Of a DNA stretch of 64,000 nt, positions 58 through 60,168 are shown one piece after another. The notes beneath the pieces are model-generated. The model made no database searches, was not told where the DNA came from, and worked only from the letters and a program-made list of their open reading frames with translations. The DNA is from Puccinia triticina. Taxonomy: Eukaryota > Basidiomycota > Pucciniomycetes > Pucciniales > Pucciniaceae. Position 1 is the first letter of the stretch; every line of letters starts with the position of its first letter. Location: assembly GCF_026914185.1 (NCBI RefSeq), contig NC_070562.1, positions 1,736,001 through 1,800,000 on the forward strand, given 5' to 3'. Both the position numbers and the translations under genes were made by a program.

Positions 58-309
58 GGTTAAAAGCCGGTTCTGCTATTCGGTATCTGAGTCCACAGCT
101 CGGGAGACCAGCATTGAATGGTCGGTTGAGGAGGCAAACTAAAAGAGATTCGAGAGAAAGTGATAGAAGAAACGCTAGAGAAAAAACAAAAAGAAAGAGA
201 CATCGAAGAAAAAGAGAGAATCAAAGCGATCAAAGATTTTGAAGAAGAAACTCGGGCGTACTACAAGAACAATCACCAACCAGTACCCTCCTCCTCGACT
301 TCAGTAGTA

Positions 310-3300
310 ATGGCGGCAACACCATTGGCCGAAGACTACTTCCACCTAAAAGGTGAATTACAGCGCCTCAAAGGTCTACTCAACAATGTGAATCTCCTCC
401 GCCCAAACCCGCAAGCCGAAGGAGTCAACAGCGTGCTTCAAAGCTTTCATAAAAAGCTGCTAGACCTCCACTACATGCACAATCCCAAGAAGACTCGGCT
501 TGCGAAGGGAAAAGCGAACTTCAAAGTCTGGGACCGCGAAATCAACCGGACGCTGAAATATGTCTTTGAAAATCAAGGGACTTTTAGCGAGCTTGAGGCG
601 AATTTTGTATCTCGGTCGGCCAAAGATCAGGCGGCCATTGCATGCCTATTGCGGTCGACAATTGAAACAACACTGTTGGACATAGTAGACGGTGTGAACT
701 CGGATAACCCATGGACTATCTTCACTCAGCTCAAGAACCAATGCGACAGGTCCGACAGACAACATAAGCTGGACGTCATCAACCAGTTTGCCGAACTAAT
801 CGGCAATCGATCGCCTGGGACAGAGGTGAACCTAGCGAATTGGAGCAAAGTGTGGACCGAGATGACTCAGCTGAAGATCTTGTGGGAAGAAGCTGGAGGC
901 CTCCTGCTCCAAAGCAGCTTTGCGGCACCGGTTGGTATTGATGCGAAGACTTTCGAATTTATGGTTAGTCAGAAGCTAGAAGCCACCAAGGATGCGACTT
1001 TCAACGATGTCATGACGGTTATCCAGGCTGCATCCGGCAAGTCCCAAAACAAGGCATCCCAAAATATGGACGACTCATACGCCCCGATGGATCTAGACGC
1101 GGTGAATGCAGTCAGATCAATGGCGGGAAGATACGCGCCACCTCACAAACGCACTCCACCGCACTTCGGACAACAGCAGAAGAGCGGGCAAAATCAACAG
1201 AGCACCCCGCATACCAATCAGCCTAAGCCGAACTTGTCAATTGAGAAGGCGTTGGCTTACCGTGGATACCCCCTCACCAGCCACCTAGCGGGAAAGTGGG
1301 GCGTTCAATGCCATTACTGCAAGCAAGACGGTCACTGGCATAACAACTGTCGTCTATTCTGGGAGGACGTCGAGTCGGGAACCATAGGACCTCCTCCGGA
1401 AGGACACGATACACCAGGTTCAAACTACCTTCCGCCTGAACGGCCGTTCGGAAAGAGCAACCGACTTCGACAACTAGACATACCGGAAGTCGGGGATGGG
1501 AAGATCTTACTAGATTCGGGAGTGTCTACTCATGTGAGTGGTTCCCTCTCACTCTACACCTTGACTGAAGAACTTGATCGACCTAGAAGAATACTACTGG
1601 CAGTGGCTGATTGCTCCATTGATGTCAGACTCAAGGGGACGATCACAATCCCAACAAAGCAAGGCGAAGTGAAGATTGAAGACGTCTACTATTGCCCTGG
1701 CGTAGACGGGGTCATCCTATCGGTTGGAAGACTGACGAATGTGGGATGGCAACTGGAATTCCGCGGACGAGAAGCGACGTTGACTAGTCCCTTGAAATTA
1801 GTCTTTAACACGTTGTACCGCAATTTCTGTTGGTTTCTGAGTAATTTAAACCAATCTCTTGTCTTGAATAAAGTCACCCAACGCCCCTCGTTTGATCCTT
1901 TCTTGTGGCATAGATGGCTCGGCCACGTATCAGAAGAAGTAGTGAGAAAATACCTAAGGCAGCATTACCCAGAAGAGGTTGAAGGAAAAACATGGGACTC
2001 GTTTTTCTGTACTCAATGCGCAAAGTCTGAAAGTGTTGATAAGAAATCTCCTGGAGGAAATTCACTGATTCCACGAGATGAACCGCTTGACTTACTCGTG
2101 TTGGACGTTGCAGGACCATTCTCATATGATCTTTCGGGAAAACGCTACGTTCTGACTTTGAGAGACCACGCTACAACATACATCTTCTGCGACGTTTTGG
2201 TGCAGCGGAGCGAGGTCCCGGCGAAAATCATGGAATGGTTGAATCATCTCAAAGTCACCATTGGCCGGTATCCCAAGAACATCCGATGCGACAATGCTCC
2301 AGAATACACATCATCGCTGAAGAAGCTCCTCAAACCCATCGGGGTTTCTTTAGCTCCGGTCCCGCCGTACAGCCCTGAGCAGAACGGAGAAGCAGAAAGG
2401 GTGAATCGAACGCTAGGCAATATGGCTAGGACAATGCTACACAAGTCTGCAATGGCACGTCCGTACTGGAGTTACGCGTACCGCATGGCGGCCCACATCC
2501 ACAACAGAATCCCAAACAAGAAGATAGACTCCTGTCCACTACAAGCGTTGTACAACATCGAGGTGGATCCGAATGTCCTATACCCATTCGGAGCAGACGC
2601 GATTGTACACATCCCAAAGGAGAAGCGCGACAAACTCTCAGAGCGGGCCATCTCGGGGAAGCTCATCGGTTACCCGGCAGCTGGGGCAGGATGGTTAGTA
2701 CACTCTAATCAGAATGGTCGAATTTTGCACTCGACGTCGGTCATATTTCCCGAGTTCCAGAACTTACCAGTAAAGAAGAAAGAAGCCAAGCGTGGCGATC
2801 TGGATTTCATAATCAACCAGATAGTTCTAAAGCTAGGAGAAGAGACGACTGATGAGCAAGCAAAAGCAGAACAGAAAGCCATAGCAAATTTGCCGATAAA
2901 TGAGGATCGGCGGATTCCCCTCAATATCCGGTCGGCACTCCGAGCAAAAGACTCATCGGCATGGCGAGCTGCGGCAAACTACGAGATCGACAAGTTTTTC
3001 GAATTAGACGTCTGGATACTGATGGACCCGTTCCCTGGAGCTAAGGCGTTGGGGTGCAGGTGGGTTTTCGCTATCAAAGAAGGCATGCAGCAAGATGATC
3101 CGGAAATATACCGCGCAAGATACGTAGCGAAGGGTTTCAACCAAGTGATGGGCCGCGACTGCAACAAGACATATGCGCCGACGGCATCCTTAGTCACCCT
3201 CCGTCTATTAATCTCCCTAGCCATCAAGTACCACTATCCGATTGCGACCTTTGACGTCAGTTTGGCTTATTTGTACAGCCCCATCGAGGAAGATGTGTAC

Positions 3301-4637
3301 GTGCAGCCCCCGGTAGAAATTCGTCCGGAGTTGAAAGGGAAAATTATGAAACTCAAGAAGGCGATGTACGGCACAAAACAGGCCGCGCGATGCTGGTGGA
3401 AGTTTTTCAAGTCAAAAATGGAAAACCTGGGATTCATTGCTTCAGAGTTAGAACAATCATTATACATCTACCGGCGCGGGAACGGCTTCATTATAATCTG
3501 GTTACATGTGGACGATGGATTTGCGGTGGCGTCGAACGAAGAGCTGATGGGAGAACTACGGACGGCGATGGAAAAGGAGATGAAGATAAAGTGGTCAAAT
3601 GATGTGGCGAAACTGGTCGGTATAAACATCAAACTGAAAGCTGATGTCGTGGAACTCGACCAAGAAAAGCTTGCCAGCCAGATCGTGGCGGATTATTCCA
3701 GGCCGGTTTTCACTCAGCGGAGCACCCTCCCGGATGAAGCGCTAGAAATTCACTCTGGCGAACCTCTAGACCAGACGGAGTACCGCTCTACTCTTGGATC
3801 CCTGATGTACCTCGTGGCTGGGACACGGCCAGACTTGTCATATGCCGTGAATCTACTGGCAAGGTACAGTGAAAACCCATCGCCAAAGCACTGGAAGGCA
3901 CTAGATTTTCTAATTGGTTATCTGAAGCGGTCGAAGTCGGTAAAACTGAGCCTGAAAGGAGCTGGGGATTCTTTGGATCTGTGGTCGGATGCGAACTGGG
4001 GCGGCGAGCATGAACGGTCGACATCTGGGTTTGTTATCAAGCATTTGGGGGACTCGATTGCGTGGGGAGCGAAGCGGCAGACGGTCGTGGCATTGTCGAC
4101 TTGCGCGGCGGAATATGTAGCCTTGTCGGACGGGGCACAACACTTGGCAGGTCTTTCAATCCTTTTAGGGCCTGTACCACAGGGCATGAAAATTGAAATT
4201 TTCCAAATTTATTTGGCTCAAAATTTCTTGGGACAAAAACTGAGCCTGTCCAAAATGTAGGCTTGAGCCTAAATGTGAAGAATTTCAACATTTGAACCCT
4301 CTGCTAGTTTTCAATTTTTGTGTACAGGGCAAAAAAAGTTGAATTTTTTTAAAGTTGAGACCCATGGTACAGGCCCTAAGAAGATATCCATCACTCGATC
4401 AAGATGAACATTTTTTGCGACAACGAAGCGGCAATATTAATAGCAGGCGACAATGCATCAAAGAAAAGGACAAAATATTTAATGCGGGCTTTCTATTTCA
4501 TCAATGATTTTGTCAGGGAAAACAACATCAAGATCATCTGGACAAATACAAATCTTCAACAAGCGGACATTTTCACCAAAAAGCTGGGACCAAACAAGAT
4601 GGAAGGGGCGATGGCAAATCTTGGTCTAAGGGCGTGA
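310..4637 (+). pseudogene. Copia-1 gag-pol polyprotein, split by a MITE near its 3' end
   Basis: Polyprotein of a Ty1/copia LTR retrotransposon. The open frame reaches back to about 160, but the first ATG is at 310. Order seen: UBN2/copia-type gag, zinc knuckle CHYCKQDGHWHNNC, protease motif LLDSGVSTHVSG, an HHCC integrase zinc finger, an integrase core with D (LVLDVAGPF), D (RCDNAPEY) and E (NGEAERVNRT), reverse transcriptase with LHVDDGFAVA, and RNase H starting LWSDANWGGEHERS. All catalytic residues checked are present. The frame runs into a MITE at 4168 and stops at 4260; the rest of RNase H (FCDNEAAILIA to ADIFTKKLG) resumes after the MITE and ends at 4637. Removing the MITE and one target copy rejoins the frame (SILL then EDIHH), matching the related Copia-3 protein. 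It was probably intact before the MITE landed. Confidence 0.93.
4165..4379. mobile_element. 209-bp MITE with GGGCCTGTACCA ends, inserted in Copia-1
   Basis: The body is 4168-4376. Its ends are perfect 12-bp inverted repeats (GGGCCTGTACCA). It is flanked by TTA on the left and TAA on the right, which fits a 3-bp TWA target duplication with one change (PIF/Harbinger-like). There is no internal coding capacity. The same ends border the 1.5-kb element at 55488-57015, so both probably used one autonomous source. Confidence 0.85.
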
Positions 4638-29845: not shown

Positions 29846-29932
29846 TCCCCCGAGCCGGGATCGAACCAGCGACCTCAAGATGACACATCTACCCATTACA
29901 GTCTCGCGCTCTTCCAACTGAGCTATCGGGGG
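29846..29932 (-). tRNA. tRNA-Tyr (GTA) with 14-nt intron
   Basis: Folds as a full cloverleaf: acceptor CCCCCGA with TCGGGGG, D arm GCTC/GAGC, anticodon stem CGAGA/TCTTG, T arm GCTGG TTCGATC CCGGC, discriminator A. Anticodon GTA is followed by A37, then a 14-nt intron (TGGGTAGATGTGTC). A second copy lies 9 bp away. Its 3' half is the sequence copied in the primer site at 11574-11623. Confidence 0.95.
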
Positions 29933-29941
29933 CCCTACGCA

Positions 29942-30030
29942 TCCCCCGAGCCGGGATCGAACCAGCGACCTCAAGATCGACTCGTTTTATCCATTACAGT
30001 CTCGCGCTCTTCCAACTGAGCTATCGGGGG
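29942..30030 (-). tRNA. tRNA-Tyr (GTA) with 16-nt intron, second copy
   Basis: The mature sequence is identical to the neighbouring tRNA-Tyr. The intron differs in length and sequence (TGGATAAAACGAGTCG). Only 9 bp separate the two genes, so co-transcription is possible. Confidence 0.95.
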
Positions 30031-33848: not shown

Positions 33849-33929
33849 AGTCCCCAACGTGATTTGAACACGTGACCTGCCGCTGTGCTGACTGCAGGCG
33901 GCCGCTCTAAACCACTGAGCTATGGAGAC
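33849..33929 (-). tRNA. tRNA-Cys (GCA) with 7-nt intron
   Basis: Acceptor GTCTCCA pairs with TGGGGAC. The discriminator is T, as expected for tRNA-Cys. D arm GCTC/GAGC, anticodon stem GCCGC/GCGGC, T arm ACGTG TTCAAAT CACGT. Anticodon GCA follows T33. Seven extra bases in the anticodon loop (TCAGCAC) are read as an intron. Confidence 0.9.
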
Positions 33930-58105: not shown

Positions 58106-59525
58106 AGGGACTTGCCTTTACACGCCGGGAGTACTTCTTGCCGCGCGGCCATGTGGATCCGACGGGTTGCATCAAATTTGGGAAACCCACGTGGAATTCA
58201 GGAATTGTGGGCACCCCGTTGGAAAAGGACAGAGGTGTGGATTCCTCATCCATCCAATGGGAAAAATGCATGGATTCCACGCCAGGTCATGGACTCCCGG
58301 TGGAGTCCATGAGCGCACAGATCTGTGATTGTGGAAACCACACTTTCACTTATTTTCTATGTGCTTTCCACGGCTGCTCTGATCAGGCAGGATCATGCTT
58401 GTATGCAGTCATGACTGTTGATTGCTGGTCTCATCATGCCCCGCCCAGTTAGGTTTTATTTGACTTCATATCCATCCAAAAGGCCAAGGTCCTTGATTCA
58501 CCTCCCGTCATCATAATGCAAGCTCCTTGAAGCCTGCCCTCCCCTCCTCCGAACTCCTCCAAACTCCTCCAAACTCCCTCCACACTCCTCCTGTCCAGTC
58601 TCTGCTTGACTCCATGCCTGATCAGAAAAAAAAAACGCCCCGCCGAGCCCACCACCCAATACCAACACGCTCCTCTCAACCCGCTGTGAGCCCTTGTCGA
58701 CCTTTCTCAACCACCTCCTGACTATGGACCCGATAATTTGCGCTCTGAGCCCCGGCTCTCTCCATAGAGCTTGAGAAAAACCAGGCAGCAATTGATCATG
58801 TGCATGCTTTACTCTCCAACAGTCTCAACAAAACAAGGTACATATCTCTCTTTGGACACATTATCTGAGCTTACAAACCCAAGGAAGTGTGTGTATGTTG
58901 ATGAACGGTTGATCCTCAACCAGTTCGTCGCCCAACAAGACATCAAGACCCGGCGCCATGAGCATCTCCTGGGCATCCTTTTGAGAAGCTCAACTCCCAA
59001 GACCCTCGGCAGCATTGTCAGACTGCCCTCTCTCAGGATAATCAGCCATGCAAGAAGCAGCAGCAGCAGATGAATGGTTGGGCAAAGGATGTGGCGGATG
59101 GGGAGACTCCTCTATCTACTCGCCATCCTTGCCCTTGTATTTGTCCCCTGGCAGTGGCACCCATCCAGAGCTTCCCTTGATCACATCTCTATCTGTCTCA
59201 CATTGCAATCGTTCATCTCTGTCAGCCTGTAGGTAACTAACCGTGTCTGGGAGGGTTGTTACTAGCAAGATGATAGTGTAAGATGCCAAGGATGGGCCAA
59301 TGGGTTTGTGGTAAGACCTGTAAAAGGTTTCACTCTATCAGTAATCTTGACTGAGAGGCTTGCTCAATTAAGGCGCATCCAGATCAACACAGGGTGTTAA
59401 TAGGCATCCAAGGAATAACTCAACTTGGGTTTGTGGTTTTACCTACAGAAAGGTAAGGGTAATCAAGAGTTATTGTTATTCCTGAATTGAAAGATGGTTG
59501 AGAATGAAGGCACTGTTTAACTATG
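58106..59525. other. Repeat-derived spacer
   Basis: No gene recognised. A hairpin CATGGACTCC with GGAGTCCATG lies at 58288-58311. A short imperfect tandem repeat of CTCCTCCAAA occurs at about 58545-58610. Confidence 0.4.
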
Positions 59526-59632
59526 TGTTGAGTTGTCTGTTAGTCTGCTACCATGATGTATCACCACAGTATGGAGGGCTGTTGGATCGACCCATGAGCA
59601 CTACCAACCAACCACCCAGCTGGCAGCCACAA

Positions 59633-59717
59633 GCGCCTGTAGCCTAGTTGGTAAAGGCAGCACTCTAGTATGTGTCTCAGCATAGCTGAGGCCGTGAGTT
59701 TGACTCTCACCAGACAC
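59633..59717 (+). repeat. tRNA-like module in TRIM LTR 1
   Basis: Reads as a class II-type tRNA. The acceptor strands are GCGCCTG and CAGACAC (GCGTCTG in LTR 2 pairs at 6 of 7). D arm GCCT/AGGC with A-box TAGCCTAGTTGG, long variable arm CTCAG CATAG CTGAG, T arm GTGAG TTTGACT CTCAC. The anticodon stem is GCAC/GTGT with an 8-nt loop TCTAGTAT, so it is not a normal functional tRNA. Confidence 0.75.
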
Positions 59718-60055
59718 ATCTTCATTTTACAGTCTCTACAGGTTATGAGCCCAGAGCTACCTGAGCACTACTCGCTTACAATAGAGACTTGATGAATTTG
59801 TGAATGCTTACTTGTAAGACCACGCAAACCCCTATAAGCCTACATCTAGATCACGGGTTCAATCCCTACGCTGATCATCTCTCCTGGGTCTCATTCCCAC
59901 TCTCTCTTGGGGTCAATCCCCACTTCCCATCATGTAGCAAGGGGGGGGTGTTGAGTTGTCTGTTGGTCTGCTACCATGATGTATCACCACAGTATGGAGG
60001 GCTGTTGTATCGACCCATGAGCACTACCAACCAACCACCCAGCTGGCAGCCACAA

Positions 60056-60140
60056 GCGTCTGTAGCCTAGTTGGTAAAGGCAGCACTCTAGTATGTGTCT
60101 CAGCATAGCTGAGGTCATGAGTTCAACTCTCACCAGACAC
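60056..60140 (+). repeat. tRNA-like module in TRIM LTR 2
   Basis: Same module as in LTR 1 with a better acceptor (GCGTCTG) and a better B-box loop (GAGTTCAACTC). Substitutions between copies are mainly transitions and keep the T arm paired. Confidence 0.75.
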
Positions 60141-60168
60141 ATCTTCATTTTACAGTCTCTACACTATG

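What the first reader, a model, noticed from the sequence alone, without database searches (positions are those of the whole stretch)
59526..60163. A TRIM retrotransposon whose LTRs carry a tRNA-like Pol III module
Seen: 215-bp LTRs, primer site, polypurine tract and a perfect CTATG duplication define a complete 638-bp TRIM. Each LTR contains an 85-nt sequence with paired acceptor, D, variable and T arms and A- and B-boxes. Known: Cassandra TRIMs in plants carry 5S rRNA promoters in their LTRs. Inference: this element may use a tRNA-type internal promoter, so RNA could start inside the LTR by Pol III. I do not know of a described fungal TRIM with a class II tRNA module in its LTR.
Basis: partly seen in the sequence, partly recalled or inferred. 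Interest (0 to 1): 0.88.

Follow-up and report, generated by a model that had tools for sequence, protein, structure and literature searches.

The report
Rust-fungus Helenus TRIM with tRNA-like LTRs

Summary
Window 59526-60163 is a complete 638-bp TRIM: 215-bp LTRs (96.7% alike), CTATG duplication, iMet anticodon-arm primer site, G8 purine tract, and an Rfam tRNA match in each LTR (35.7 and 35.6 bits; cutoff 29). The 122.8-Mb genome holds 503 module and 133 internal probe sites, no reversed-control sites.

The novelty does not hold. Kojima 2024 (PMC10886601) named tRNA-in-LTR TRIMs Helenus, many from rusts. LTR-1_PTrit of Puccinia triticina agrees in tRNA type, internal length and copy number (529 LTRs, 144 internals); its letters could not be compared.

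Added here: a full-length Copia (L065), and one insertion with a 5-bp TSD (L064) whose 5' LTR is that Copia's, less 157 nt, joined exactly at the primer site to this TRIM's interior and 3' LTR. I read it as a trace of joint reverse transcription.

Pol III transcription remains inferred. Two tests gave no support: module conservation within the family (p = 0.82) and T4 avoidance (68% of shuffles also lack T4). The window copy has a damaged 5' B box and the most LTR differences of 30 copies examined.

The parts
59521..59525 (+). target-site duplication CTATG, left
59526..59740 (+). 5' LTR, 215 nt, TGTTGAG...CTCTACA
59633..59718 (+). tRNA-like module in the 5' LTR, 86 nt, Rfam RF00005 35.7 bits
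59640..59651 (+). A box TAGCCTAGTTGG
   Evidence: consensus recalled
59697..59707 (+). B box AGTTTGACTCT, the conserved C changed to T (CpG-type change)
   Evidence: consensus recalled
59725..59728 (+). TTTT, possible weak Pol III terminator, 5' LTR
   Evidence: role inferred
59741..59757 (+). primer-binding site, 16 of 17 nt complementary to the spliced anticodon arm of an initiator-Met-like tRNA gene of the same genome (L068)
59741..59948 (+). internal region, 208 nt, no sizeable ORF (longest ATG ORF overlapping the element 88 aa)
59937..59948 (+). polypurine tract GCAAGGGGGGGG
59949..60163 (+). 3' LTR, 215 nt, 96.7% identical to the 5' LTR
60056..60141 (+). tRNA-like module in the 3' LTR, 86 nt, Rfam RF00005 35.6 bits
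60063..60074 (+). A box TAGCCTAGTTGG, 3' LTR
   Evidence: consensus recalled
60120..60130 (+). B box AGTTCAACTCT, 3' LTR
   Evidence: consensus recalled
60148..60151 (+). TTTT, possible Pol III terminator, 3' LTR
   Evidence: role inferred
60164..60168 (+). target-site duplication CTATG, right

Best explanation
It is a worn copy of a high-copy Helenus TRIM, very probably LTR-1_PTrit, in a Puccinia (P. triticina-like) genome. Shown: the TRIM anatomy, the tRNA-like module in both LTRs, the multi-copy spread with 5-bp TSDs, and one hybrid insertion that joins a Copia LTR to this TRIM at the primer site. Inferred steps: Pol III starts near the module's 5' end in the 5' LTR, reads past the weak T4 there and stops at or after the T4 of the 3' LTR, giving a short RNA with about 100 nt of R at both ends. 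That RNA is packaged by Copia-encoded proteins and primed by a half iMet tRNA on the anticodon-arm PBS. It is copied by Copia RT and inserted by Copia integrase, which can accept it because both elements begin TGTTGAG, end in CA and share the purine tract.
For: Anatomy. Copies: 42 matches (40 of 565 candidates scored); 97 A-box/B-box/PBS composites against 0 for the reversed pattern; 503 modules and 133 internals, 0 controls. Perfect TSDs in 26 of 30. No LTR-LTR substitution in 9 of 30 copies, so recently mobile. PBS fits the spliced iMet arm 16/17. Candidate helper: L065, a Copia with one 1499-aa frame, TSD ATCTT, the same first 12 nt of PBS and a matching PPT/U3 start. Hybrid L064: 5' LTR equal to the L065 LTR minus 157 nt, TRIM interior and 3' LTR, TSD CAATT on both sides. 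Published family: LTR-1_PTrit, 529 LTRs and 144 internals, 426 predicted tRNA-Thr-AGT genes, internal 198+12 nt; 5-bp TSDs in fungal Helenus and the iMet anticodon loop as its dominant primer.
Against: The module is no less variable than the rest of the LTR within the family: 8 of 80 against 15 of 127 non-CpG columns vary (p = 0.82). Absence of T4 between the two LTR T4s is not unusual: 68% of shuffles have none. A T4 in the 5' LTR could end the RNA early. This copy's 5' B box has lost its conserved C. L065 shares no internal sequence with the TRIM beyond PBS and PPT, whereas Kojima relates LTR-1_PTrit by its internal region to Copia-9_PGr, so L065 need not be the main helper. Only one hybrid has a TSD. 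No RNA data were available.
Confidence: 0.85

Rival explanations
1. A Helenus TRIM whose module is only a captured, passively copied tRNA relic; the element RNA is made by Pol II from the LTR or from neighbouring genes.
For: Within-family variation does not single out the module; no T4 avoidance beyond chance; a hybrid with a Copia LTR exists, so Copia LTRs can be put in front of the TRIM body.
Against: No TATA 4-mer in the TRIM LTR; the Copia LTR has one, itself weak evidence. Kojima reports box A and box B conservation between Helenus families. 14 of the 16 changed B boxes among 60 LTRs are CpG-type changes.
Confidence: 0.25
2. A SINE or tRNA-gene array mistaken for LTRs: two tRNA-derived SINEs in direct repeat.
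For: tRNA-like module and short length.
Against: LTRs begin TG and end CA, PBS and PPT sit at the exact places, and 26 of 30 copies have a perfect 5-bp TSD around the whole unit.
Confidence: 0.01
3. The hybrid L064 arose by recombination between two chromosomal insertions rather than during reverse transcription.
For: The primer site gives a short homology at the junction.
Against: Perfect 5-bp TSD across the hybrid (1 in 1024 by chance once the LTR start is fixed) and a junction exactly at the LTR/PBS border.
Confidence: 0.1

Closest known systems
Helenus, in particular LTR-1_PTrit (Kojima 2024, PMC10886601)
   Same: TRIM under 1 kb with a tRNA-like sequence in the LTR; Thr-AGT type (one module here is called Thr agt by ARAGORN); internal about 210 nt there, 208 here; 529 LTRs and 144 internals there, 503 and 133 probe sites here. 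5-bp TSDs, the iMet anticodon-loop PBS and Copia dependence are given in the text for fungal Helenus in general.
   Different: Nothing found that separates them; the Repbase letters and the PBS of LTR-1_PTrit itself were not seen, and the counting rules differ. Kojima relates it to Copia-9_PGr by its internal region; the Copia found here (L065) shares only the PBS and PPT/U3 start.
Cassandra TRIMs of plants
   Same: Small-RNA promoter sequence inside the LTR; tandem LTR-internal-LTR arrays (L028 here; passages of PMC7215508).
   Different: 5S rRNA there, tRNA here; different host kingdom; Pol III transcription shown there according to Kojima, not here.
Ty1/copia elements with anticodon-loop priming (Drosophila copia, Ty5; as cited by Kojima)
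   Same: PBS complementary to the anticodon arm of a tRNA; 5-bp TSD.
   Different: This element encodes no protein of note.

Membership tests
TRIM | short, non-coding, two LTRs with PBS and PPT, TSD | tested here: met
Helenus | tRNA-like sequence inside both LTRs | tested here: met
   Rfam RF00005 above gathering in both LTRs
Helenus (fungal) | 5-bp TSD | tested here: met
   26 of 30 perfect; L008 and L020 one mismatch; L028 lies in a tandem array; L029 none
Helenus (fungal) | PBS to a tRNA anticodon arm, spliced form (the majority type) | tested here: met
   16 of 17 nt against the spliced iMet-like tRNA L068
Helenus (fungal) | mobilised by Copia | tested here: inconclusive
   indirect support: one hybrid with TSD (L064) plus Copia L065; transposition itself not testable
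Helenus | box A/B conserved between families | not tested
   pattern searches for other families did not complete; reported by Kojima
Helenus / TRIMp3 | transcribed by Pol III | not testable with these tools
   no RNA data; not shown in the paper either
LTR-1_PTrit | identity to the Repbase consensus | not testable with these tools
   Repbase and supplements not readable; agreement in copy number, tRNA type and internal length
Cassandra | 5S rRNA sequence in the LTR | tested here: not met
   Rfam gives tRNA and no 5S match in the window

The most novel reading that the evidence does not exclude
A Pol III-made RNA whose LTR is unlike its helper's, but for the first few bases, is packaged and reverse-transcribed beside a Pol II-made Copia RNA. 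Primer-site homology alone lets plus-strand strong-stop DNA of one jump to the minus strand of the other, which leaves hybrid proviruses such as L064 and moves TRIM bodies under Copia LTRs.
Probability: 0.45. Interest if true: 0.5.

Novelty: already known. Interest (0 to 1): 0.3.

Why it matters
The family is published, so the element itself is not a discovery. Two practical points remain. First, the genome holds a full-length Copia with one long frame (L065) and a hybrid (L064), which make the question of who mobilises Helenus easier to test. Second, hundreds of tRNA-like modules pass tRNA models, so tRNA gene counts in rust genomes are inflated (Kojima). Small-RNA pipelines that discard reads mapping to Puccinia tRNAs and RF00005, as in PMC8444563 (passages seen), may also discard Helenus RNA (inference).

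Tried and rejected
Within-family conservation of the module: no signal (60 LTRs of 30 copies). A first version on 97 LTRs showed lower variation in the non-CpG columns of the A and B boxes, but 30 of the 60 loci had been picked with a pattern that demands the boxes, so I set it aside.

T4 terminator avoidance: not significant.

Origin of the module from a host tRNA: 13 host tRNA-like sequences aligned. Best scores: Thr L074 (30.5, shuffle z 5.7), window 33849-33929 (26.0, z 5.5), Leu L069 (23.5, z 5.8); no clear parent. Nine regions around tRNA hits (57 hits listed): none showed a direct repeat holding the tRNA or the iMet-type PBS word; L070, L071 and L072 hold other repeats, in L072 an inverted one with two tRNAs. 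The PBS test covered only the iMet type.

Autonomous partner with a TRIM-like internal region: eight sites, chosen by eye from the 100 listed of 133 because no LTR module seemed near, were fetched. All eight hold TRIM internal and at least one TRIM LTR; none is an autonomous element. At least two similar sites were not fetched. L062 has 77 nt of TRIM-like internal behind another LTR, then is broken by another repeat; its continuation was not found.

Species by protein: three weakly named hits, none of them named as fungal. Species rests on genome size and contig number.

Other Helenus families in the genome: the searches did not complete. Paper searches found nothing.

Full report
What is there. 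The finding's coordinates are exact. Between two CTATG copies lie two 215-nt LTRs, 96.7% alike, and a 208-nt internal region that starts with a primer-binding site and ends with GCAAGGGGGGGG. No ORF of note is present; the longest ATG-started frame overlapping the element is 88 aa. Each LTR holds an 86-nt tRNA-like module that passes Rfam's tRNA cutoff (35.7 and 35.6 bits, cutoff 29) and is called by ARAGORN. The MFE of the 3' module is a cloverleaf with a 6-bp extra arm; that of the 5' module is not, and neither energy is exceptional (z -1.13 and -1.78). The same module in two chimeric loci scores 42.9 and 42.8 bits, so this copy is worn.

Host and copy number. P. triticina haplotypes have 18 chromosomes and 121.6-123.9 Mb (passages of PMC8957140 and PMC10627818), so the host is probably that species; a protein search did not help. 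The first DNA search gave 42 matches, with only 40 of 565 candidates scored. A pattern of A box, B box and PBS has 97 sites, 0 for the reversed pattern. A 30-nt module probe has 503 sites and a 29-nt internal probe 133, both with 0 reversed controls, at up to 3 mismatches. By arithmetic (503 - 2 x 133) some 237 modules have no share in a two-LTR copy, as solo LTRs would give. I examined 30 copies, the best matches to the window copy: 26 have a perfect 5-bp TSD, L008 and L020 differ by one base, L028 lies in a tandem array and L029 has none. The LTR pair shows no substitution (gaps not counted) in 9 of 30; the window copy, with 7, shows the most.

It is known. Kojima 2024 (PMC10886601; I read the outline, parts 1-4 of the text, the figures-and-tables section and search passages, not parts 5-6 in full nor the supplements) defines Helenus as TRIMs with tRNA-like sequence in the LTR and reports 113 families from Pucciniales. 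LTR-1_PTrit of P. [quoted passage not shown] hits over 90% of length and identity, so the rule differs from my probes). It accounts for 426 predicted tRNA-Thr-AGT genes, and its whole internal portion corresponds to 198+12 nt of Copia-9_PGr. Fungal Helenus makes 5-bp TSDs and mostly uses the iMet anticodon loop as primer; the text seen does not give the PBS of LTR-1_PTrit itself. ARAGORN, without introns, reads one module here as Thr (agt, in L013) and nearly all others with an incomplete anticodon 'ag' (exceptions in L011, L044, L055; none found in L060). Copy numbers, tRNA type and internal length agree. The Repbase letters were not available, so the last step of the identification is inference. 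A search for 'Helenus' with 'TRIMp3' found only this paper.

Primer. A tRNA gene with an iMet anticodon arm and a short intron lies at C10:4723164-4723244 (L068; 52.4 bits). The PBS is complementary to 16 of 17 nt of its spliced anticodon arm. That it is the initiator rests on my reading of its T loop (recalled).

Helper and hybrid, the new part. A PBS pattern meant to leave out the TRIM did not do so (115 sites, 100 listed, most of them with the TRIM's own letters), but four listed sites with odd letters before the PBS were picked by eye and fetched as L061-L064. L064 is a single insertion flanked by CAATT on both sides. Its 5' LTR is 196 nt and unlike the TRIM's; then, exactly at the PBS, come the TRIM internal region and the TRIM 3' LTR. 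Searching with that LTR (60 matches, 40 of 337 candidates scored) led to L065, fetched: a Copia element with LTRs of 353 and 367 nt (99.7% over 336), TSD ATCTT, and one 1499-aa frame with Pfam Copia-gag, integrase and reverse-transcriptase matches above cutoff. The L064 LTR equals the L065 5' LTR letter for letter once 157 nt are left out. The missing stretch can also be placed so that it begins GT and ends AG, with one mismatch to the 5' LTR and none to the first 179 nt of the 3' LTR; it is bounded by 52-nt repeats, so loss by splicing or by repeat slippage cannot be told apart. L065 shares with the TRIM the first 12 nt of the PBS and the PPT/U3 start, and no other match was found. The simplest reading is an intermolecular plus-strand transfer: Copia strong-stop DNA annealed to the TRIM minus strand at the primer site inside one particle. 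That is inference from one clean case. L061 is a degraded Copia with a similar junction, followed by the Copia's own PBS and coding remnants. L079 has unrelated sequence with a B-box-like stretch in front of the TRIM internal region and no TSD; Rfam gave no match in L079 at E 0.5 or better, not even in its own diverged TRIM LTR. Among 73 internal matches in the loci held (overlapping loci, so not all distinct copies), 70 reach the internal start; 65 of these follow a TRIM LTR and 5 do not (L061, L062, L064, L079, L082).

Pol III. The module has the A box, a B box and a T4 six bases after its end; 30 of 30 copies have a T4 at that place in both LTRs, and one (L017) has a further T4. The TRIM LTR has no TATA 4-mer, the Copia LTR has one. 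A Pol III RNA from near LTR position 105 to the second T4 would carry about 100 nt of terminal repeat, enough for strand transfer (inference). Two tests did not support selection on the module: 8 of 80 against 15 of 127 non-CpG columns vary (p = 0.82), and a T4-free interior appears in 68% of shuffles. Both have little power with copies this young and this short. The B box carries GTTCGA in 44 of 60 LTRs, GTTTGA in 9, GTTCAA in 5 and other changes in 2 (the second of these two lies just after the GTTCGA). This copy has GTTTGA in the LTR that would drive transcription, so it may be weak (B-box role recalled).

Verdict. Correct and careful observation, known family, Pol III role open. The hybrid and the candidate helper are worth a note to a specialist.

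Noticed in passing
L064 96-723 (in G000:C14:1446900-1447900): Hybrid insertion: Copia 5' LTR, TRIM internal region and TRIM 3' LTR, with TSD CAATT.
   Followed up: yes
L065 31-5505 (G000:C11:450480-456010): Full-length Copia with one 1499-aa frame; its LTR holds a 157-nt stretch, which can be read as GT...AG, bounded by 52-nt repeats and absent from the hybrid's LTR.
   Followed up: partly
L061 and L066 (G000:C1:1157300-1163400): Degraded Copia whose 5' LTR is joined at the PBS to the TRIM internal region and LTR, followed by the Copia's own PBS and coding remnants.
   Followed up: partly
L079 100-400: In front of a TRIM internal region lies a B-box-like stretch with a T5 run, possibly the LTR of another Helenus family; no Rfam match.
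   Followed up: partly
L028 (G000:C5:1245286-1246343): Tandem LTR-internal-LTR-internal-LTR array of the TRIM, as known for Cassandra.
   Followed up: no
window 29846-30030: Two tRNA genes in tandem, 96-98 nt apart, with the same body and different middle (intron-like) parts; by my reading of the anticodon, Tyr.
   Followed up: no
window 160-4257: Copia frame of 1366 aa with RT but no Pfam integrase-core match at E 0.001 or better.
   Followed up: no
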